A stretch of 55,052 nucleotides of DNA from Lachnospiraceae bacterium (GTDB lineage Bacteria; Bacillota; Clostridia; Lachnospirales; Lachnospiraceae), in assembly GCA_017940415.1 (NCBI GenBank), contig JAGAYR010000047.1, forward strand, positions 1 to 55,052, read 5' to 3'. Below the pieces are notes generated by a model. The model saw only the letters and a program-made list of their open reading frames with translations, did no database searches and was not told the DNA's origin. Shown here one piece after another: positions 1,131 through 10,979 of this stretch. Each line of letters opens with the position of its first letter. Position 1 is the first letter of the stretch. A program made the translations under genes and the position numbers.

Positions 1131-1442
1131 TCACTTTATATTCTTTGGATTCTGAAGAACATGATACATTCGATCAACGATTACTTGATTATTTACAATA
1201 TGATATATCAGATAATAATTGTGCATATTTACAAAAAGTATTTTTCTAGATCCGAATTTATTGAATTGTCCTCCAATCAATCGAAACGTACCTGCAGCAT
1301 ATGACAGTTTATCCAATGTGTCGTAAAAATCTTTTTCCACGCTCACTACTGCCTGAGGATTTTTCTTTTCATATGCCAAGTAAATCAAATTATTTAGCAA
1401 ATCCTCTTTAGCATGCTGTGTAACAAGAACTCTATACACCAA
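1131..1442 (-). CDS. type II toxin, RelE/ParE family
   Basis: A 103-aa protein with the RelE/ParE fold pattern: an N-terminal strand (YRVLVTQHAKEDL), two helices, then RLIGGQFNKFGSRKILF and NYYLIYHIV strands and a C-terminal VDRMYHVLQNP. ParE toxins inhibit gyrase; RelE toxins cut mRNA on the ribosome. The RMYH end suits either, and the sequence alone does not separate them. It overlaps the antitoxin gene by 11 bases, giving the usual antitoxin-first, translationally coupled order. The cassette sits inside a surface-glycan operon and is bordered by inverted repeats, which suggests it was acquired separately. Confidence 0.85.
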   Translation of the reverse strand: MVYRVLVTQHAKEDLLNNLIYLAYEKKNPQAVVSVEKDFYDTLDKLSYAAGTFRLIGGQFNKFGSRKILFVNMHNYYLIYHIVNNQVIVDRMYHVLQNPKNIK

Positions 1443-1854
1443 ACAGCGCCCTCATTTCCTCTCTTATCTGATCGGGAGAATACAGCTTTCCGGCTTCAGC
1501 ATCCTTTCTGGCCTCTTCAAGTTCCTCAAGCATTTCCTCCTCAGTCAATGGAGAAAAGAGTCTGTCTTTATTTTGCTTCATAAATTGCAAGAAAGATTTA
1601 TAAAACTTCATAAGGTCTTTCTCACTAAGATTATCATTCTCTTCCATTTCTGTTGCCTTTTGTTTCAGATCAGTTAAGCCTTCGCAATATGCATTCATCC
1701 TTTTGGCAAATTGCATACGATTAAATTCATCAACGCTGATTATAACAACATTCTCATTTCTGGGCCTTGAGATGATAACCGGTTCGCCTTCATATGCTTT
1801 TTGAAAAAATTCCTTTTGATTCATTCTAAAATCAGCAGGTTTTGTCACAATCAT
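1432..1854 (-). CDS. antitoxin, Phd/YefM family
   Basis: A 140-aa antitoxin. Residues 1-55 are Phd/YefM-like: MIVTKPADFRMN, then EPVIISRPRNENVVIISVDEFNRMQ, the domain that dimerises and binds DNA. The acidic C-terminal half (EEMLEELEEARKDAEAGK) would wrap the toxin. It is longer than the usual 80-90 aa because of a central insert around residues 60-105. The start has GGAGGATAAAGCG in front. Upstream lie two TGTACA boxes 12 bases apart, the same geometry as the YefM-YoeB operator, so autorepression by the complex is expected. Confidence 0.88.
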   Translation of the reverse strand: MIVTKPADFRMNQKEFFQKAYEGEPVIISRPRNENVVIISVDEFNRMQFAKRMNAYCEGLTDLKQKATEMEENDNLSEKDLMKFYKSFLQFMKQNKDRLFSPLTEEEMLEELEEARKDAEAGKLYSPDQIREEMRALFGV

Positions 1855-1970: not shown

Positions 1971-3878
1971 TTACGCACCTACTGCATTATCAGTCTGTTC
2001 CATGTGGCGATATGCATCACAAACTTCCTTGGGATTACCGACCATACGAAGTTCGCCCTTTTCAATCCATACGCATCTGGTACAGTTCTCAAGGATGGTG
2101 TTCATGCCGTGGCTGACTATAAGAACAGTACTTCCGCCATGGATCATCTCTTTGATGCGTGCAAGGCTCTTCTTTCTGAAGAACTCGTCGCCTACGGAAA
2201 GAACTTCATCAAGAATAAGAATTTCAGCTGCATCGCCCGCTGTAGCAATAGCGAATCCGAGTCTTGAAACCATACCCGATGAGAAATTCTTAACCTTCTC
2301 TTCCATGAAGTCTTCAAGTTCAGCGAATTTCACGATATCGTTATAATGTTTGTCCAGAAAATCCTTGGAATAACCAATTATTGATCCATTCAGGTATACG
2401 TTCTCTCTGGCGGTAAGTTCCATATCAAAACCGGTTCCCAGAGTCAGAAGCTGTACCTTCTTTCTGTCTACAGTTATACTTCCGGATGTAGGTCTTAACG
2501 CACCGGATACGATCTTAAGAAGGGTACTCTTACCGGAACCGTTAGTTCCGATGATTCCGATAACTTCGCCCTTATAGACATCAAAGCTTACATGATAAAG
2601 TGCATATAATCTTCGATAAGAAATATTACGTTTGACCATCTGAATCAGATAATCCTTAAGGCCTGAAGGATTATATGTAGAGAGATGGAAAACCATGGTA
2701 ACGTCTTTAACAGAGATTACTCTTTCTCTGTCATCCACAGGATAACCTGCTTCCATATTTATGATCTGAAGTTCCTGTTCGGTGAGAGTTACAGTATCTC
2801 CACTGATTTCCGAAACAATATCATTTTCGGTATATAAACCATCGTTGGAGGCTTTTACTCCATCGGGTGATTCAATGACATATTCATTCCTATTTTCTTC
2901 TTCATAATTAGGATCTTCCAAAGAATCCACATAGCGTTTGGCTTCGTTTTTGCGTGCTTTAAACTCATCTCTTGAAAGCCATAGAAGGAATAATAAAGCT
3001 AATGCAGAAGCAACCAAAATACCCATTAGGATTGCTGAATCATTCAGATTTTTTTCATCTTCCGGTTCAGAGCTTCCATCGTTAAAATACAGAGGATTTG
3101 CATCTACAATTGTTTCCGGTTCTGAAGTCGGGGACGGAGAAGTGATTTCAGTGATATCCGAACCAGGTATCTCTGTTTCTTCTGCAGCAGCCTCAGGCTC
3201 TTCTTCCGTAAATGCCTCAATCTCTTCTTCAGGCACTTCAGGCTCTTCTATTATTTCTTCAGCCTGTTCATCCATCTCATCAACCGGTGTTTCATCCGGC
3301 TTTTCTTCGGGTTTATCTTCAGGCTTTTCCTCAGGTTTAGGTGCTACTCCCTGAATCATTATGGGAGCCATTGCACTTCCGGTAATGGTACACTCCATAG
3401 GATCTGCGCATGGGATTACTGTCCCATCTTCCAATATCACGTCAGGGAAATCATAAGTATAGACATAATTCGCAACAGCATGTATTTCCGAGAAGGATTC
3501 AGTCTTAGCTTTAAATACAAGCATAAACTTCTTGGAATTAGCACCGTTACCTGTTTCATCAACTATAAAGACAAGTCCGTTTTCACGATCGTATCCGGAG
3601 CCTCCACTTACATATTCGAGGCAATTGGGATCATATCCGACGGTAACGGAACTTGCGCCGACCCCATCCATGCACTTAACATATACTCCAATCTTAAATT
3701 CTTTACCTGCCTTAGGTGTGTAGGATTCAGAGCCAAAGGTGACATATGCCTCAGCCGCAAATACATCAGTAGAAGGGACAATAGCAAAGCAAACAGCCGT
3801 ACATATGATCATTACGGCTAATTTTATTGCTCCCGATATTTTGTTGTGTAGCTGTGGACTATTCAAACTATATACCAA
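1971..3878 (-). CDS. polysaccharide ABC exporter ATPase fused to a secreted cohesin-like domain
   Basis: A 635-aa fusion. Residues 16-42 form a Sec signal or anchor ending near VFAAEA. Residues 44-166 resemble a cohesin/CBM-type beta sandwich (GKEFKIGVYVK, VGYDPNCLEYV, FMLVFKAK). Residues 178-275 are a Pro/Glu-rich spacer with EEKPEDKP repeats. A membrane helix lies at 281-301 and a cytoplasmic linker at 302-385. The ATPase at 388-630 has Walker A GTNGSGKST (444-452), signature SSGM (533), Walker B ILILDEVLSVGD (553-564) and the H-loop His590. The signature and Walker B match Wzt/TagH-type glycan exporters. Wzt and TagH carry extra domains at the C-terminus; here the extra domain is N-terminal and outside the cell. 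The start appears to be TTG without a clear ribosome binding site, 7 bases after the permease stop, so translational coupling is likely. The domain may hold or select the exported glycan (inference). Confidence 0.88.
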   Translation of the reverse strand: MVYSLNSPQLHNKISGAIKLAVMIICTAVCFAIVPSTDVFAAEAYVTFGSESYTPKAGKEFKIGVYVKCMDGVGASSVTVGYDPNCLEYVSGGSGYDRENGLVFIVDETGNGANSKKFMLVFKAKTESFSEIHAVANYVYTYDFPDVILEDGTVIPCADPMECTITGSAMAPIMIQGVAPKPEEKPEDKPEEKPDETPVDEMDEQAEEIIEEPEVPEEEIEAFTEEEPEAAAEETEIPGSDITEITSPSPTSEPETIVDANPLYFNDGSSEPEDEKNLNDSAILMGILVASALALLFLLWLSRDEFKARKNEAKRYVDSLEDPNYEEENRNEYVIESPDGVKASNDGLYTENDIVSEISGDTVTLTEQELQIINMEAGYPVDDRERVISVKDVTMVFHLSTYNPSGLKDYLIQMVKRNISYRRLYALYHVSFDVYKGEVIGIIGTNGSGKSTLLKIVSGALRPTSGSITVDRKKVQLLTLGTGFDMELTARENVYLNGSIIGYSKDFLDKHYNDIVKFAELEDFMEEKVKNFSSGMVSRLGFAIATAGDAAEILILDEVLSVGDEFFRKKSLARIKEMIHGGSTVLIVSHGMNTILENCTRCVWIEKGELRMVGNPKEVCDAYRHMEQTDNAVGA

Positions 3879-3885
3879 CAGACAT

Positions 3886-4662
3886 TTAAATGGTCTGCAT
3901 TATCTTATTTTCCTGAATTCTGAAAATGATCATTCCAAAAACAATGCTTGCAATGCTCCATCCGCCTAGTCTGATCCAAACCCAGCCTTGCGGTACTCTT
4001 CCGTACATAACACATTCTCTTGCAAACAGGATCATCAAATACACCGGATTCATATTTACTATTTTCTGAACCATCTCAGGCAAACTGTCTACAGGATAGA
4101 AAATAGCCGACATGTACATTAAGAGTGTAAGGAATATTCCATAGAGGTATTTGATATCCGCAAAGAATACATATTCAGTTGCAAGAAGATATCCCACTCC
4201 TATGGAAAAGATAAGTGCAAACAGAATTCCTACAGGAAACAACAACATTGTCAGAGTAAACTTAATTCTGAATATCAAAAGCATCAAAACAAATGCGATA
4301 CAGGTATACCCGAAATTCACCAGAGCGGTATATACTCTCGACAATATAAACGTATGCTTCGGTAGTTTTGCCTTGATAAGAAGTGATTTATTATCCACCA
4401 GTGCAGTCATGGCAGAATTGGTAGCTCCGCTGAACAATCCCCAGATGGTCTGTCCCGTCAGATAATATATTGGGAAATTCTCAATCGACCTTTTAAACAT
4501 AGTCGAGAATATGAGTGACATTACCACCATCATTAAAAGGGGATTTAATACGCTCCAGATAATTCCCAACGAACTTCTGGCATATTTTCTCTTGATTTCT
4601 CTTGATGTTAATTCTCTTATTACGAAGACATATTGAAGTATGTCGCTGAATCTGCCCTTCAC
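3886..4662 (-). CDS. ABC-2 type polysaccharide exporter permease (Wzm/TagG-like)
   Basis: A 258-aa integral membrane protein with six hydrophobic segments and the TagG/Wzm hallmark N-terminus: an amphipathic helix, then LTSREIKRKYARSSLGIIWS and VLNPLLMMVV. It pairs with the downstream ATPase to move a lipid-linked glycan across the membrane. Its ATG overlaps the stop of the preceding gene by 4 bases (ATGA), and the ATPase follows after 7 bases, so the three genes form one translational unit. Length is normal for the family. Confidence 0.92.
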   Translation of the reverse strand: MKGRFSDILQYVFVIRELTSREIKRKYARSSLGIIWSVLNPLLMMVVMSLIFSTMFKRSIENFPIYYLTGQTIWGLFSGATNSAMTALVDNKSLLIKAKLPKHTFILSRVYTALVNFGYTCIAFVLMLLIFRIKFTLTMLLFPVGILFALIFSIGVGYLLATEYVFFADIKYLYGIFLTLLMYMSAIFYPVDSLPEMVQKIVNMNPVYLMILFARECVMYGRVPQGWVWIRLGGWSIASIVFGMIIFRIQENKIMQTI

Positions 4663-6032
4663 TTAATTACCGTCTTTCTGATCTCTGTCACTGCCTTTAA
4701 ACATCTTTCCGACATCAGACCAAATTTCTTTCTTAAACCATCCGAAGAAGCTGCTATGCTACCTTCCGGCCATCCGCTTACAGGTACTTTTCCGGTCTTC
4801 AGTCCTGCTTTAACGAACATTTTCCTGAAGAAGGAATTATCCTTAAGTTCCTCTCTTCCCCACTTTGCGGCAAGCCTTTTCATATCATCTTCCACAACAT
4901 CGTCAGAAAAAGAAAACTTGCCCAGAGCCTCGCTCTCTTCCTTCGTGGGATTCCCCATGCAAAGCTTAAGAAGTTTCTCACACATCTTAAGCATCGCATT
5001 ATTATCAATATGCTTTAAATCTTCAGAAGCAAGTACTTTAGAATAATCTTCCAAATACACTAAGGCTCTTCTTATAAATCCGACATTTGGATTACCACAT
5101 TCATCTGTAACAGGTTTCACTTTGCCGTCCGAATATTCATACCCATAGGTCATAGATTCAGGGGATGAACATATACTTTCGAAAAGACAAATACTAAATC
5201 TTACTTTTCTTAGGAGATCTGACAATCCCGATCCGGGAGAGATGTAATAACTCCGATATGCATCCGGTGATGCACCTGAAGGTATAGAATACAGTCCGAA
5301 ATAATATCCTTCGAACCCTTTATCTTCTCCCCCCACTATTTTGTTTATACTTCTTTGAACGGTACCGATCCATCCGCTGTCTACAATACAAGTATCGTTC
5401 ACCCGTTCTTTGGTAAGTCCTTCCTGTTTCAGATAGTCAGAAACAGATTTTAGCTTTCCATCCGAATGTACCTTCACCATCTCGAAAAACTCAGGCACTT
5501 CACGCAGCTTTTCCTTGATATCTCTTATCTGCTTATGAGTAAGTACGTCATTTACTCTTCCGATCATTCCGCACTTCTCTGCAACCTTCTCAATCTCTTC
5601 TTCTGTCAGAGACGCCCTTTTCATCATCTTGGCAAATGTCAGATTCAGAGCCCCGAGACATATGGTATCCAGACATTCTTTCCCCATAAGTCCGTACTCG
5701 GCACTTCTCAGGGCATATCTGGAAACTGAAACAATACTGAGCTCTATCTCCGGCGCAATCACGGGCGCAAGCTTTAACGCGGCAATATAAGGGAGATATC
5801 CGTCTCTGGCAAGAAAAACAAGTCTCTTAATCCCACGATCATGAGCATCACGAAGGACATATGTCACATAAGAGCATATAACGGGTGCAAACACATAAAT
5901 GAACGCTTCATCTTCGGGAGGAAGCTCTGTGTATTTCTTAAGACAGGCGTCCGTACTTCGGGCGAATAAGGGATTCTCCGACACGTAATTCCGATACGTC
6001 GATAATCTTTTCTTCGGTATCGAACCGGTCAT
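4659..6032 (-). CDS. large glycan-cluster protein (COG5610-like, HAD-type association)
   Basis: A 457-aa cytoplasmic protein of the kind often found in Lachnospiraceae glycosyltransferase clusters. Recognisable stretches are RLVFLARDGYLPYIA, SRYALRSAEYGLMG and CIVDSGWIGTVQRS. They resemble the rear part of proteins labelled predicted HAD-superfamily hydrolase (COG5610), but the N-terminal DxD HAD motif is absent. No function can be assigned. The start has a strong GAGGGAG eight bases upstream, although this makes it overlap the preceding glycosyltransferase by 95 bases. The C-terminus is translationally coupled to the exporter permease. Confidence 0.7.
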   Translation of the reverse strand: MTGSIPKKRLSTYRNYVSENPLFARSTDACLKKYTELPPEDEAFIYVFAPVICSYVTYVLRDAHDRGIKRLVFLARDGYLPYIAALKLAPVIAPEIELSIVSVSRYALRSAEYGLMGKECLDTICLGALNLTFAKMMKRASLTEEEIEKVAEKCGMIGRVNDVLTHKQIRDIKEKLREVPEFFEMVKVHSDGKLKSVSDYLKQEGLTKERVNDTCIVDSGWIGTVQRSINKIVGGEDKGFEGYYFGLYSIPSGASPDAYRSYYISPGSGLSDLLRKVRFSICLFESICSSPESMTYGYEYSDGKVKPVTDECGNPNVGFIRRALVYLEDYSKVLASEDLKHIDNNAMLKMCEKLLKLCMGNPTKEESEALGKFSFSDDVVEDDMKRLAAKWGREELKDNSFFRKMFVKAGLKTGKVPVSGWPEGSIAASSDGLRKKFGLMSERCLKAVTEIRKTVIK

Positions 6033-6867
6033 TAATGTTCTCCCTCTCAGCTCTTGCTATTCTTCCTTCGATTCTCTTACACAGTCCGATTACAAATCCC
6101 GGAATCACGCATCCAACCAAAGGTCTCAGTACATATATCCATCCAAATGGAAACAGGATTCCCATTTTGCGATAGTTTTCAAACCTTACCTTAGCTTCAC
6201 TTATTCTGTAGCAAGGCTTTCTCATCCGGTATGATTCATAGGACTCATGATACCTGAAGAGCGGTTCCTGAATGTTATAGCCTTTCAGTCCTTTTTGAAT
6301 CAGCCTCATGAAGATTTCAAAATCTTCACACTTATATGTCTCTTCTTCCTCCAAATATCCGGTATCCGTATCAAAAACTTCTCTCCTGAACATTACCGAA
6401 GGATGAATGTATGGAGAAAACCTGTAATAATCTTTTACATTCGGAACTTCAGGCATGTTCCTGTATCCCCATACTCCCTTTTCATCAAAGAGTTCCGCGC
6501 AGGTTCCACACCAGGAATATTCTTTATTTGTTTCCAGGAATTCAACCTGTCTTGCGAATCTATCAGGAAGACACTCATCATCCGCATCCATTCTTGCAAT
6601 AAATTTTCCCTTCGCAAGTTTGATGCATTCGTTAAGCGAAAAAGCAAGCCCCCTGTTTTCATCGCGTCCGGCTAGAATAATCCTCTTATCCAGAACACAT
6701 AGTTTCCTGAGTTCATCCGAGACCCACTGTTCGGAGCCGTCGTCCCAGATAATGAACTCAAAATCAGAAGCAGTCTGAGCAAGAACGGAATTAACCGCTC
6801 TCTTCAGCGCTTCGATGTCCCATTGGTTGTATACTCCCATTATTACCGAGATCAAGGGTTTTCTCAC
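5938..6867 (-). CDS. family 2 glycosyltransferase
   Basis: A GT-A glycosyltransferase of about 309 aa: PLISVIMGVYNQ at the N-terminus, WDDGSEQW, the metal-binding ARMDADDECLPDRF, CEDFEIFMRL and a C-terminal amphipathic or hydrophobic region (FGWIYVLRPLVGCVIPGFVIG) that may touch the membrane. It adds one sugar during glycan assembly; specificity unknown. The longest frame begins at 6930, inside the upstream gene. GTG at 6865-6867 is preferred because GGGGAGGAG stands just before it and VRKPLISVIM is the usual start of the family. The 3' end overlaps the next gene by 95 bases, which is unusual. Confidence 0.9.
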   Translation of the reverse strand: MRKPLISVIMGVYNQWDIEALKRAVNSVLAQTASDFEFIIWDDGSEQWVSDELRKLCVLDKRIILAGRDENRGLAFSLNECIKLAKGKFIARMDADDECLPDRFARQVEFLETNKEYSWCGTCAELFDEKGVWGYRNMPEVPNVKDYYRFSPYIHPSVMFRREVFDTDTGYLEEEETYKCEDFEIFMRLIQKGLKGYNIQEPLFRYHESYESYRMRKPCYRISEAKVRFENYRKMGILFPFGWIYVLRPLVGCVIPGFVIGLCKRIEGRIARAERENINDRFDTEEKIIDVSELRVGESLIRPKYGRLS

Positions 6868-6889
6868 GTTTCTCCTCCCCATGAAGAAA

Positions 6890-8050
6890 TCATTTAACCT
6901 TTTTACTGCAATGCTGAATGGCTCTTTCATACACGGGACGCATTATCTTCCTGACTTCACCGTCGGTAAAATCAAATGCCGAATCCCTGCAGTTATCCGA
7001 AAATCTCTTTAAAAGCTCGGGATTACTTTTGAGCTTCCTTATTGCGAAAGCGTACTCTTCCGCTTTTCCGGTTTTACATACTATGGAGTTAATACCGTCT
7101 TTGGCATATTCATGAGCTCCTCTTGTATCAGATGCTATAAGAGAAACTCCACACAAAAGGGCTTCTACTGCGGCAATACCGAATCCTTCTCTTATAGACG
7201 GGAAAGCAAATACATCCGCAGTTTGAAGTATTTCTTCCATATCTGTCCGGTATCCGATAAGTCTTACTCTGTCTTCAAGCTCATACTTTCTAATGAGCTC
7301 TCTTAAATATTCTTCATTCGGTCCCTTCCCGCAGATGCTGTAGTAAACATCTTTATCATCCATCCGGGCCAGGGCTTCGATGATAACTTTCTGATTTTTG
7401 TTGTCGTTGATTTCGGCAGCAGTGACTATATGAAAAGCATTTTCGGGAATTCCGATTTCTTTTCTCTTGGATAAGCGTATTTCAGGAATTGGTTTAAACC
7501 TATCGGAATCACATCCGACTCCTCCGATCCTTGTTACGCCATCCTCATCTCTTACATTAAAGCGAAGTGCTCTTTTATAATCTTCTGCGTTGATCGTGAC
7601 TATGTGATCCGTCCATCTGGCCAGGAATTTCTCTGCGCTGTAATAAAGCAGCCAGTTAAGAAACGGAGCACCTTTATAGAAATGAAATCCGTGTGCGGTA
7701 TATATGACATACGGATGCTTTTTGCTGAACCTTGCTGCCACTCTCGCGGTAACGCCGCCCATGGGATTGTGGCAATGAATGATATCTATATCTTCCCTAT
7801 CTATCAGAGCTTTTAGGATCTTTATGGCGTGAAGATTATCCTTAATGCTCAACGGACTTTTTCTTACAGGAATCTGATGAAGTTCTATCCCCTGTTTCAC
7901 CAGTTCTTCCCGGTCAAATACATAAACGGGGTTGTCAAAATTGGACGCATAGAATACTTTGCATCCAAGCTGCCGGGCACACTGTGCATCGCCCGATTCA
8001 AATTGCGGAAGGAATCCGCTGATAGTTGTAACAAACAGAAAATTTGCCAT
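6890..8050 (-). CDS. family 4 glycosyltransferase (EpsD-like)
   Basis: A 386-aa GT-B enzyme. The N-terminal Rossmann domain carries HCHNPMGGVTAR and TAHGFHFY. The C-terminal domain carries VTAAEINDNKNQK, GKGPNEEYLREL and the donor-binding EGFGIAAVEALLCG (the E-x7-E motif of GT4). The FLFVTTISGFLPQF start and HGFHFYKG resemble EpsD/CapM-type enzymes, which add an early sugar to a lipid-linked acceptor. No Shine-Dalgarno is visible. The gene follows a stem-loop at 8063-8094, so it may depend on read-through from the anchored-protein gene. Confidence 0.9.
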   Translation of the reverse strand: MANFLFVTTISGFLPQFESGDAQCARQLGCKVFYASNFDNPVYVFDREELVKQGIELHQIPVRKSPLSIKDNLHAIKILKALIDREDIDIIHCHNPMGGVTARVAARFSKKHPYVIYTAHGFHFYKGAPFLNWLLYYSAEKFLARWTDHIVTINAEDYKRALRFNVRDEDGVTRIGGVGCDSDRFKPIPEIRLSKRKEIGIPENAFHIVTAAEINDNKNQKVIIEALARMDDKDVYYSICGKGPNEEYLRELIRKYELEDRVRLIGYRTDMEEILQTADVFAFPSIREGFGIAAVEALLCGVSLIASDTRGAHEYAKDGINSIVCKTGKAEEYAFAIRKLKSNPELLKRFSDNCRDSAFDFTDGEVRKIMRPVYERAIQHCSKKVK

Positions 8051-8104: not shown

Positions 8105-8791
8105 TTATGCTCTGCGATATCTCTTGAAGCAGATGACTGCGCCTAAAAGGCCGGCAAGAATGATAAATGATACTCCGTAAGTAACTCCGGTCTTGGGAGC
8201 CTGAGCTGCTGCGGTGGTATTGACTTTAACTATTGAAATGGGAGAAAGGCTTGATGTCTGGAAATAAACCTGATTAGCTGCTACAGAGATGGGCTTAATA
8301 AGTTCCCAAGTCTTGGTTATTTCATTATAGTGAAGAATCGCAATGGTATCTCCCGCTGCGATCATTCCGTTAGTCAAGACAACATTATACATACCATTTG
8401 CATCCTTGGTTGCGGTAGTAGGATCTACATCAACAGTTGAAAGGACGGTAGAGGTAACGATGGCACCCTGAGTTGTAGCTGAAGTAACAAGATCGGGATT
8501 TCCGAGGAAAAGTCCGAGAGAAGCAACGTCTCTCATCATAAGATTCTGAATTGCAACAACGGCTGAATCAGCGGTTGTCTGAGATACTGCTGTAACCTTA
8601 AATCCCTCGTTTGTTGCAGTGATTACTGCATAATGCTCGGGAGTTGCGGTGTTATTTACGGTAGTGATGGATGTCTGAGTGGGAACGGGAAGCTGAGCCT
8701 GTCCGACAGAGGGACTGTCAGCAAGAACCGTCGTGGAACTGAGCAGAGTAAGTGCAGCTGCCGAAATAAGAGCCAGTACCTTCTTTTTCAT
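8105..8791 (-). CDS. secreted cell-wall-anchored protein with APKTG sorting signal
   Basis: A 228-aa protein. Residues 1-24 form a Sec signal (KKKVLALISAAALTLLSSTT, cut near VLA-DS). A Thr/Ala/Val-rich beta domain of unknown family follows. The C-terminus is a sorting signal: APKTG, a hydrophobic helix (FIILAGLLGAVICF) and the tail KRYRRA. The motif has Ala in place of the Leu of LPXTG. The class B sortase two genes upstream is the obvious partner; C. difficile SrtB is known to use (S/P)PXTG-like sites. ATG 8789-8791 is chosen over the one at 8795-8797 because AGGAGG is 7 bases from it. The protein's role is unknown. Confidence 0.82.
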   Translation of the reverse strand: MKKKVLALISAAALTLLSSTTVLADSPSVGQAQLPVPTQTSITTVNNTATPEHYAVITATNEGFKVTAVSQTTADSAVVAIQNLMMRDVASLGLFLGNPDLVTSATTQGAIVTSTVLSTVDVDPTTATKDANGMYNVVLTNGMIAAGDTIAILHYNEITKTWELIKPISVAANQVYFQTSSLSPISIVKVNTTAAAQAPKTGVTYGVSFIILAGLLGAVICFKRYRRA

Positions 8792-8874
8792 TTTCATTCC
8801 TCCTGATAAAAAACAATGTAAAACATTATTTAACTTAAGTCGGTATATCCCGACGGGATAACATTTAGATCGTT

Positions 8875-9975
8875 TTATAGCACAGGTTCATAGAAAAGCT
8901 TAATGATAAGTTCCTGAAGAGCATCATCATCTATGTAATACTCTTCAAAGTCGGTTCCCTGAATCGTCTCACCTTCAACAGAATACATATTCTTAACATT
9001 GAATTCGTAATCCACAGTCTCTGAAGCCAGGTAAGTAAAGCTGCTTACGTTCAGGTCGGTCACCATATATTTCTGCATTATATTAAACAGATCTATTGCA
9101 ACGGAGATATCTCCTTTCGCACTTTCTTTAGCCTTGGCGGCAAAAGAAGTCAGATACTGTTTCTGTCTCTCTAATCTGAGTGAGTTCGATTCAAACAGAT
9201 CCTCATCTCTCAGTCTCACGTACCAATATGCCTTATCTCCCATGAGGGTTACCGTCTCACCCTGATGAAGATCCATATCATATTCGGGATAGACGATGGT
9301 TTCCAGAACTTCAACCGTTACACCGCCTACGGCATCGTTTAATTCAGGAATGGCATCCATGCTTATTGCGGCATACGCATGTATCGGTATATTATGCATC
9401 AGTCTGGATACTGCTTTGACCTGATGTTCTGCACACATAACCTGATCCGTTCCGTAACCGTGCTGAAGTGCTATTTGCTGTGTATAGATTCCTCTGTAAG
9501 TTCCGGATGAATCCCATACATCCACATCACCCATCGTGTTTCTGTTAATGGTTACTATGGAAATCTTTTCCGTATGAGGATCAAGCAGCATCAGAAAAAG
9601 TGCATCAGCCTGTCCTCCGTTATTAGCGGAAAACTCATCTATGTCCCAGCTCTGTCCGCCTATCTCGTAAACTGTTTCCGTATCTATTCCCATAACGAGG
9701 ATACATACGAGATCTGTGTTGGGAGAATATTCTACTCCGTTATAAAGAACATGTCCTTCCGAAATCTGCACCGGCTCATTATCCGGTAAAGCATCTCCGA
9801 GGTCCGTAACTGTTCCCTCAAGTCCGGAGCTGAGTTCATAGAGATCGTTTTTTCCGACTGTGCGAAGCACTACATAGATTCCGGCTATCACAAGCACGAT
9901 TCCTATAAGGGTTACGACAAATTTGGCCGTGATGCTGACTTTCCTTTTTTCGGTTATTATCCTGTCTTCTATCAA
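8875..9975 (-). CDS. LytR-CpsA-Psr (LCP) family glycopolymer ligase
   Basis: About 366 aa with one N-terminal membrane helix (FVVTLIGIVLVIAGIYVVL) and an extracellular LCP domain: CILVMGIDTE, ADALFLMLLDP, ISIVTINRNT, LNDAVGGVTVEV and RDEDLFESNSLRLERQKQYL, which carries conserved Arg residues. LCP enzymes move lipid-linked wall glycopolymers onto peptidoglycan outside the cell, which fits the exporter genes next door. The longest frame starts at 10053 inside the sortase gene. TTG at 9973-9975 is preferred: it follows the sortase stop by 14 bases and has CGGAG 8 bases upstream. Confidence 0.88.
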   Translation of the reverse strand: MIEDRIITEKRKVSITAKFVVTLIGIVLVIAGIYVVLRTVGKNDLYELSSGLEGTVTDLGDALPDNEPVQISEGHVLYNGVEYSPNTDLVCILVMGIDTETVYEIGGQSWDIDEFSANNGGQADALFLMLLDPHTEKISIVTINRNTMGDVDVWDSSGTYRGIYTQQIALQHGYGTDQVMCAEHQVKAVSRLMHNIPIHAYAAISMDAIPELNDAVGGVTVEVLETIVYPEYDMDLHQGETVTLMGDKAYWYVRLRDEDLFESNSLRLERQKQYLTSFAAKAKESAKGDISVAIDLFNIMQKYMVTDLNVSSFTYLASETVDYEFNVKNMYSVEGETIQGTDFEEYYIDDDALQELIIKLFYEPVL

Positions 9976-9989
9976 ACCGGTACGCTCCG

Positions 9990-10979
9990 TTACGGATTTA
10001 GTAAGACACCGACAACCAGGAATCTCTTGGAAGCGTCGTGATCTGTAGTACAAGTCGAAAGAGTAATTATCCTGTCATTAACGGAAGGGGTTATGTCATG
10101 ACGGATATTGGCTACATCGGTGCTGGTAAGATCCATGTTCTGGATATTTCTCAAATACTGGTCATATATGTATTCATTTTTCACATCGAAGTTGATTAGC
10201 AGGTGTATTGAAGGATATTCATAAGCGGCAAATATCTCGTAAACAAGCGTCCTGCCATCTTCGGTATAGATGTATATGTAATGAGGAGTCTCCACCATCT
10301 CGGGATCACTGAACTTATGAAGTGTCGAGAACATGGTGGTGTTATCCATATTATGTCCGTATAGGACAGTATTCGGATCTGTAAAATCTTTACTGTTGTA
10401 ACCTTCGGTGTAGATAACTCCCGGAAAACCATACGAACCGTCAAGGTTATGTTTCAGGTAATATTCATTATTGCTGGGATGCTGAAGGACAGGATAATCA
10501 ACGGATGTACCGGGTACATTTATCCATGCATAGATATCGGAATTGGTCTCATGAAGTTTATCCCAATCGATGCCTTTGACGGGAGCTTCTTCAACTGCTT
10601 CGATATTTCTTCCGTCCGTAACCTCTTCAGACTGTTCCGTATCCGAATCCCCCGATGCCAATGCAAGTCCTTCGGGAGACAATCCGCCCTGAGATTCCTC
10701 TTCTGACGATTCCTCCACAGCCTGTGAATCACCAAGTTCTTCAGGCGTAACACTTGACTGATTAGCGTTTATCTCGCCCGGTTCAGTGCTCTCTGCGATT
10801 GTTTCATAAGTGGTATTTGAATTAGAAGTATTTTTGAATGAAACGACTAACCATACGATACCTGCGATCGCCACAAGAAGAAATGCAATACAAGCGATCA
10901 ACCAGCCGTTTCCCGAACCTGAATTTTTATGCTTTCCGGAAAAAAACATCCGCCTCTCACCACTCATAATTATACGCAC
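9990..10979 (-). CDS. srtB: class B sortase
   Basis: A 329-aa membrane transpeptidase. There is a transmembrane helix at 26-48 and a long acidic Ser/Glu linker at 50-135. The sortase barrel follows with His209 (YGHNMDN), Cys310 (TLSTCTT) and Arg319 (KRFLVVGVL), the full catalytic triad. The class B features are the N-terminal helix region (WDKLHETNSDIYAWINVPG) and the YGHNM motif. The linker is longer than usual, lifting the domain away from the membrane. It probably anchors the APKTG protein at 8105-8791. The start is uncertain: GTG 10977-10979, ATG 10965-10967 and ATG 10947-10949 are all possible and none has ideal spacing. Confidence 0.92.
   Translation of the reverse strand: MRIIMSGERRMFFSGKHKNSGSGNGWLIACIAFLLVAIAGIVWLVVSFKNTSNSNTTYETIAESTEPGEINANQSSVTPEELGDSQAVEESSEEESQGGLSPEGLALASGDSDTEQSEEVTDGRNIEAVEEAPVKGIDWDKLHETNSDIYAWINVPGTSVDYPVLQHPSNNEYYLKHNLDGSYGFPGVIYTEGYNSKDFTDPNTVLYGHNMDNTTMFSTLHKFSDPEMVETPHYIYIYTEDGRTLVYEIFAAYEYPSIHLLINFDVKNEYIYDQYLRNIQNMDLTSTDVANIRHDITPSVNDRIITLSTCTTDHDASKRFLVVGVLLNP

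What the first reader, a model, noticed from the sequence alone, without database searches (positions are those of the whole stretch)
1971..3878. Glycan-exporter ATPase carries its own secreted cohesin-like domain at the N-terminus
Seen: signal segment, beta-sandwich resembling cohesin/CBM modules, acidic Pro/Glu spacer, membrane helix, then a complete ABC ATPase with Wzt/TagH-type signature and Walker B, all in one uninterrupted frame. Known: Wzt of E. coli O8/O9a has a cytoplasmic C-terminal carbohydrate-binding domain that selects finished glycans, and TagH of B. subtilis has a C-terminal extracellular domain. Here the extra domain is N-terminal and outside. Inference: it receives or holds the glycan, or docks a wall protein (perhaps a dockerin-type partner), on the outer face while the ATPase works inside. 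This could be a new exporter type.
Basis: partly seen in the sequence, partly recalled or inferred. Interest (0 to 1): 0.85.

Follow-up and report, generated by a model that had tools for sequence, protein, structure and literature searches.

The report
Sugar exporter ATPase with outside domain
A bacterium of the gut and rumen family Lachnospiraceae, like many of its relatives, joins the ATP-burning motor of a surface-sugar exporter to a protein-docking (cohesin) fold outside the cell, which may help hand the exported sugar chain to the cell wall.

The parts
3753..3878 (-). signal peptide, residues 1-42 (TTG start at 3878, or TTG at 3866)
   Evidence: hydrophobic core 17-35 and AxA-type site; A41 at least 90% conserved in 29 fusions
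3345..3752 (-). cohesin-fold ectodomain, residues 43-178
   Evidence: profile search of solved chains, AlphaFold pLDDT 96.6, VIA-align
3036..3344 (-). acidic, proline-rich outer linker, residues 179-281
   Evidence: composition; poorly conserved
2970..3035 (-). single membrane helix, residues 282-303
   Evidence: hydropathy (283-301); charge bias across the helix in relatives
2724..2969 (-). cytoplasmic linker, residues 304-385
1971..2723 (-). ABC ATPase domain of Wzt/TagH type, residues 386-635, and stop
   Evidence: ABC_tran E 1e-21; motifs; nearest solved chains 6amx, 8dku, TagH and TarH entries
3886..4662 (-). ABC-2 permease (Wzm-like), partner of the ATPase
   Evidence: ABC2_membrane E 3e-14
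4659..6032 (-). conserved cluster protein of unknown function
   Evidence: no Pfam match over a cut-off; homologues at the same place in fusion loci
5938..6930 (-). family 2 glycosyltransferase
   Evidence: Glycos_transf_2 E 2e-27
6890..8050 (-). GT4-like glycosyltransferase
   Evidence: Glycos_transf_1 E 1.8e-39
8105..8797 (-). secreted protein ending in a PKTG sorting signal, candidate sortase substrate
   Evidence: sub-threshold NPXTG-anchor match, 20.3 against 23.5 bits; alignment A4
8875..10053 (-). LCP glycopolymer transferase
   Evidence: LytR_cpsA_psr E 3.6e-21; TIGR00350 over its cut-off
9990..10979 (-). sortase, class B-like
   Evidence: Sortase E 1.7e-15; class B model 148.8 bits, just under its cut-off of 153.75

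Best explanation
The gene makes the ATPase subunit of a Wzm/Wzt-type exporter of a surface glycan, tethered to the membrane by one helix and carrying a secreted cohesin-fold domain. Shown: frame, domain order, fold (predicted), conservation, exporter cluster, the same domain on the permease in one relative and as a separate membrane protein in capsule-type clusters. Inferred: the domain hangs on a flexible acidic tether at the outer mouth of the exporter and docks a protein of the attachment step (an LCP-type ligase, or the sortase and PKTG-protein system), so that the emerging glycan is passed to its wall-linking enzyme. In most carriers the partner is not a dockerin that Pfam can detect.
For: Cohesin fold, a fold known for protein docking (recalled). 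Single-frame fusion in 32 of 80 loci, in 30 of the 32 with a Wzm homologue next to it, and in 22 of 32 in the order GT4-GT2-unknown-Wzm-ATPase. The same domain is fused to the permease in L104, so its place at the exporter matters more than which subunit carries it. Separate SP-cohesin-helix proteins lie beside CpsB/C/D in 5 of 50 contexts, two of these also with sortase (L174 with LCP as well; L180), and in L176 beside LCP and sortase. Capsule-type, fusion and permease-type domains intermix in the domain tree. LCP, sortase and PKTG protein lie upstream in the window. In the related contexts of class A the domain stands beside a secreted protein that in 12 of 34 cases has a detectable dockerin, which fits a protein-docking past.
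Against: No partner has been shown. The PKTG protein has a strong match (E below 1e-15) in only 21 of 40 carrier genomes, and LCP, PKTG and sortase homologues were seen in 14, 12 and 5 of 32 fusion loci (6 kb flanks). Close relatives lack the domain: 17 soluble and 8 helix-only ATPases lie in the same 67-row clade, so it is dispensable in some lineages. The permease fusion rests on one metagenome-assembled genome, and 61 of its relatives gave no second case. The domain tree has few columns and many unresolved forks.
Confidence: 0.42

Rival explanations
1. The ectodomain binds the emerging glycan (or a wall polymer) itself, as a receptor or ratchet on the outer face, by analogy with the cytoplasmic glycan-binding domain of Wzt and the SH3b-like outer domain of TagH.
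For: Analogous accessory domains bind, or are thought to bind, polymer (PMC9445017 and PMC11466899, passages). No protein partner gene is found in all carriers. The glycosyltransferase pair next to the exporter is conserved in most fusion loci, so a conserved glycan part could be the ligand.
Against: The fold is that of cohesins, known as protein-docking modules (recalled). The same domain serves capsule clusters with CpsB/C/D and other sugar genes. In the 29 fusions no tryptophan of the domain is invariant or nearly so.
Confidence: 0.3
2. The domain is a structural or positioning element: with the long acidic linker it spaces the exporter from the wall or stabilises the complex, with no specific ligand.
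For: Long acidic linker; the domain varies strongly (22-39% identity of the window's domain to most of those outside its genus); it is missing in near relatives, 8 of which keep the helix.
Against: A folded domain kept in 32 of 80 loci and reused on two subunits and in separate proteins suggests a specific task.
Confidence: 0.15
3. The domain docks a dockerin-bearing enzyme, as the first reader proposed and as the related class A proteins may do.
For: Cohesin fold; related stand-alone domains lie beside dockerin proteins in 12 of 34 class A contexts; 7 of 39 carrier genomes have a dockerin.
Against: No dockerin in the other 32 of these 39, nor in 31 of 31 genus genomes; the rate is lower than in the family, 114 of 299 (Fisher p 0.012); no motif in 324 ORFs of fusion loci. 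Divergent dockerins below detection, and genome gaps, cannot be excluded.
Confidence: 0.06
4. The fusion is a sequencing or assembly artefact joining two genes.
For: G001 has one TAG in the linker; B. fibrisolvens 16/4 has the two parts in two frames, though other genes of that locus are broken too.
Against: Single-frame fusion in 32 of 80 loci, 7 of them in records not titled MAG or uncultured, and in G007, G012 and G075.
Confidence: 0.01

Closest known systems
TagH, ATPase of the B. subtilis wall teichoic acid exporter TagGH
   Same: Exporter ATPase fused to one membrane helix and an extracellular domain on a flexible linker (PMC11466899, passages, where the subunit with the extra domain is named TagG in the text); NCBIfam TagH model matches the ATPase part (173 bits).
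   Different: Order reversed: here signal peptide and outer domain come first and the ATPase last; cohesin fold instead of SH3b-like; TagH model score far below its cut-off of 320.
Wzt of O-antigen exporters (A. aeolicus, E. coli O8/O9a)
   Same: Nearest solved ATPases (6amx E 5e-52, 8dku; that these are A. aeolicus Wzt is recalled); paired with a Wzm-like permease.
   Different: The Wzt glycan-binding domain is C-terminal and cytoplasmic (PMC9445017, passages; cytoplasmic side recalled); here the protein ends with the ATPase and the extra domain is N-terminal and outside.
Non-cellulosomal cohesins, such as that of C. perfringens GH84C
   Different: Those are parts of secreted enzymes; here the domain belongs to an exporter, and most carrier genomes have no detectable dockerin.
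Capsule cluster with sortase SrtB4 of Mediterraneibacter gnavus
   Same: Lachnospiraceae glycan cluster in which mutants of the sortase, the LCP enzyme and the tyrosine phosphatase lose capsule display (PMC13121745; abstract, passages and Discussion read). Contexts L174 and L180 have a sortase beside CpsB/C/D and the ectodomain protein.
   Different: Whether that cluster holds a cohesin-fold protein was not tested; the main text does not contain the words cohesin or ABC transporter.
LcpA and GspA of Actinomyces oris
   Same: An LCP enzyme glycosylates a sortase-anchored protein (PMC6381275, passages); the window has LCP, sortase and a PKTG protein side by side.
   Different: No exporter fusion is described in the passages read; a different phylum; the PKTG protein here was not compared with GspA.

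Membership tests
ABC ATPase of polysaccharide exporters (Wzt/TagH type) | Walker A, signature, Walker B and H-loop | tested here: met
ABC ATPase of polysaccharide exporters (Wzt/TagH type) | partner ABC-2 permease gene adjacent | tested here: met
   window 3886-4662; a Wzm homologue adjacent in 30 of 32 fusion loci
ABC ATPase of polysaccharide exporters (Wzt/TagH type) | measured export of a glycan | not testable with these tools
   needs an experiment
TagH equivalog | NCBIfam TagH model over its cut-off | tested here: not met
   173 against 320 bits
TagH equivalog | membrane helix and outer domain C-terminal to the ATPase | tested here: not met
   the protein ends at residue 635 with the ATPase; the outer domain is N-terminal
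Wzt with C-terminal glycan-binding domain | C-terminal domain after the ATPase | tested here: not met
Wzt with C-terminal glycan-binding domain | the N-terminal domain has the Wzt-C fold | tested here: inconclusive
   not among the 50 rows listed, which does not exclude it
Cohesin | cohesin fold | tested here: met
   predicted model
Cohesin | Pfam PF00963 over its curated cut-off | tested here: inconclusive
   window below (20.6 against 24.1); four same-genus carriers over it (G004, G001, G028, G012) and G007 below it
Cohesin | cognate dockerin in the genome | tested here: not met
   none in the window's genome (84% complete)
Cohesin | measured binding to a dockerin or other protein | not testable with these tools
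   needs a binding assay

The most novel reading that the evidence does not exclude
A movable, dockerin-independent cohesin-fold module acts as the outer-face hub of surface-glycan export in Lachnospiraceae: it couples the exit of the glycan to its wall ligation, and evolution plugs it into an ABC exporter through the ATPase or the permease, or keeps it as a separate protein in CpsB/C/D-type capsule systems.
Probability: 0.4. Interest if true: 0.82.

Novelty: new variant of a known kind. Interest (0 to 1): 0.68.

Why it matters
How a Gram-positive exporter passes its glycan to the enzyme that ties it to the wall is poorly understood (recalled). A docking fold on the outer face of the exporter itself, recurring in many gut and rumen bacteria and swapped between subunits and pathways, gives a concrete object to delete, to pull down with and to image. 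It would also give cohesins a role away from cellulosomes and without dockerins, and may bear on why capsule display in M. gnavus needs a sortase.

Tried and rejected
Dockerin partner: Pfam Dockerin_1 searched in 59, 45 and 299 genomes and a loop motif in ORFs; disfavoured.

B. fibrisolvens 16/4 (L098) as a natural split: the 4659-6032 homologue also lies in two frames and permease pieces follow, so sequencing errors are likely.

A second permease fusion: search with the N-part of L104 in 61 genomes (itself included) matched 10; the best after itself, G395, is a stand-alone ectodomain protein; the other eight were not examined for a permease.

Fusion outside the family: a profile of 29 fusions over 291 genomes of the class at E 1e-60 or better matched 79; only the window's own genome matched across both halves.

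Wzt C-domain and CBM folds are not among the 50 rows; that is no proof of difference. Plain Foldseek was never run. A full-length model of the fusion was not made; the second folding job went to the PKTG protein.

Full report
What is there. The gene at 1971-3878(-) is one open frame of 635 aa beginning 7 bases after the permease gene 3886-4662. Its parts: signal peptide 1-42, ectodomain 43-178, acidic linker 179-281, helix 283-301, cytoplasmic linker to 385, ATPase 386-635 with Walker A, signature, Walker B and H-loop. Pfam finds ABC_tran (E 1e-21) and a sub-threshold Cohesin (20.6 bits, cut-off 24.1). The best solved chains for the ATPase part are 6amx (E 5e-52) and 8dku, recalled to be A. 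aeolicus Wzt, then TagH and TarH entries. The topology is inferred: in 26 of 28 fusions with two predicted hydrophobic segments the 20 residues after the helix hold more K+R than the 20 before it (means 7.1 and 1.9).

Conservation. In the 59 genomes the single-frame fusion is in G000, G007, G012, G016 and G028; G001 has one TAG in the linker; G004 and G019 are cut by contig ends, and in G019 only the ATPase side is seen. With an N-domain profile from the window and 23 fusions, 32 of the 80 loci are single-frame fusions, 2 (L098, L104) have the domain in another frame, and 46 show no domain; three of the 46 are cut by contig ends. Seven of the 32 are in records not titled MAG or uncultured (L090, L091, L094, L100, L102, L133, L142). 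In an ATPase tree of 85 rows the 36 fusion rows lie in one group of 67 (100/100) with 17 soluble, 8 helix-only, 3 split and 3 cut rows; the fusion label needs 16 changes, so repeated loss or gain occurred. Over 291 genomes of the class, 79 match a profile of 29 fusions, only the window's genome across both halves.

The domain moves. In L104 the signal peptide and cohesin-like domain are fused to the permease (614 aa; ABC2_membrane E 3.8e-14, Cohesin E 0.015; N-domain profile E 7e-21) and the ATPase next to it has no helix. This is a single metagenome-assembled genome. Of 84 family genomes with an N-domain hit I fetched the surroundings of 48, mostly better-scoring ones, plus two same-genus loci. 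In these 50 contexts: 34 beside a secreted protein of one family (class A), 12 of these with a dockerin by my profile built from six of them; 5 beside CpsB/C/D (class B); 3 fused to the ATPase; 3 near LCP or sortase homologues (L176 clear, L191 and L209 weak); 5 others. Of six class A partner proteins scanned, all six have Pfam Dockerin_1 and one has Pfam Glucosaminidase. In the domain tree 15 of 18 class A rows and 3 others group apart (97/97) while the other three class A rows, class B, fusion and permease rows lie mixed; few columns, many open forks.

The cluster. Upstream on the same strand: permease, an uncharacterised protein, GT2, GT4, a PKTG-anchored secreted protein, an LCP transferase and a class B-like sortase. 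In the 32 fusion loci the order GT4-GT2-unknown-Wzm-ATPase is seen in 22 and GT4-GT2-unknown-ATPase-Wzm in 3; LCP, PKTG-protein and sortase homologues appear in 14, 12 and 5, within flanks of about 6 kb.

Dockerins. None in the 31 genus genomes. L091 was not held and not searched. The family rate is 114 of 299; Fisher p 0.012 with five known carriers removed from the base, and unknown carriers may remain in it. No dockerin-loop motif in 324 ORFs of the fusion loci, 6 of 6 control proteins positive.

How it most likely works. Cohesins of known function dock proteins (recalled). What ABC-type and CpsB/C/D-type systems share on the outer face is the transfer of a lipid-linked glycan to a wall-attachment enzyme (established for LCP enzymes; PMC6381275, passages). 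I therefore favour docking of an attachment-step protein at the exporter mouth, at 0.42. Against it: no universal partner gene (a strong PKTG-protein match in 21 of 40 carriers) and near relatives without the domain. Glycan binding stays at 0.3.

What is known. In B. subtilis TagGH the ATPase is followed by a helix and an extracellular domain with some SH3b homology (PMC11466899, passages). [quoted passage not shown] In M. gnavus a sortase gene in the capsule cluster is needed for capsule display (PMC13121745; abstract, passages and the Discussion read). A. oris LcpA glycosylates a sortase-anchored protein (PMC6381275, passages). The Hungate1000 paper's four categories of Clostridiales do not include cohesins without dockerins (PMC6118326, passages); B. 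proteoclasticus B316 is said to lack cohesin components (PMC2914790, passages). The listings showed no title or abstract start describing a cohesin joined to a glycan exporter; only listed papers were seen, and most subscription papers are not in that library.

Noticed in passing
L079, L083, L084, L086, L087, L088 and other class A loci: Lachnospiraceae often pair a membrane-anchored cohesin-fold protein with an adjacent secreted protein; six of six partners scanned carry a C-terminal dockerin and one a glucosaminidase domain. This looks like a non-cellulosomal docking pair at the wall.
   Followed up: partly
L104:962-2806(+): The same ectodomain fused to the exporter permease instead of the ATPase.
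   Followed up: partly
[not shown]
   Followed up: partly
L097, L100, L102, L110: ATPase followed by two permease genes, possibly a heterodimeric permease.
   Followed up: no
window 1131-1854(-): Probable toxin-antitoxin pair inserted between the fusion gene and a glycosyltransferase; the second gene matches PhdYeFM_antitox at its cut-off (29.8 bits), the first has no Pfam match.
   Followed up: partly
L073:7742-9676(-), relative G001: One in-frame TAG in the cytoplasmic linker splits the fusion; natural split or sequencing error.
   Followed up: partly
L098:4795-9275(+), Butyrivibrio fibrisolvens 16/4: Several neighbouring genes appear in more than one frame, which looks like frameshifts in this draft.
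   Followed up: no
L106, L107, L110, L113, L117, L118, L126, L149: ATPases of the same group that keep an N-terminal helix but have no ectodomain, scattered over the tree.
   Followed up: partly
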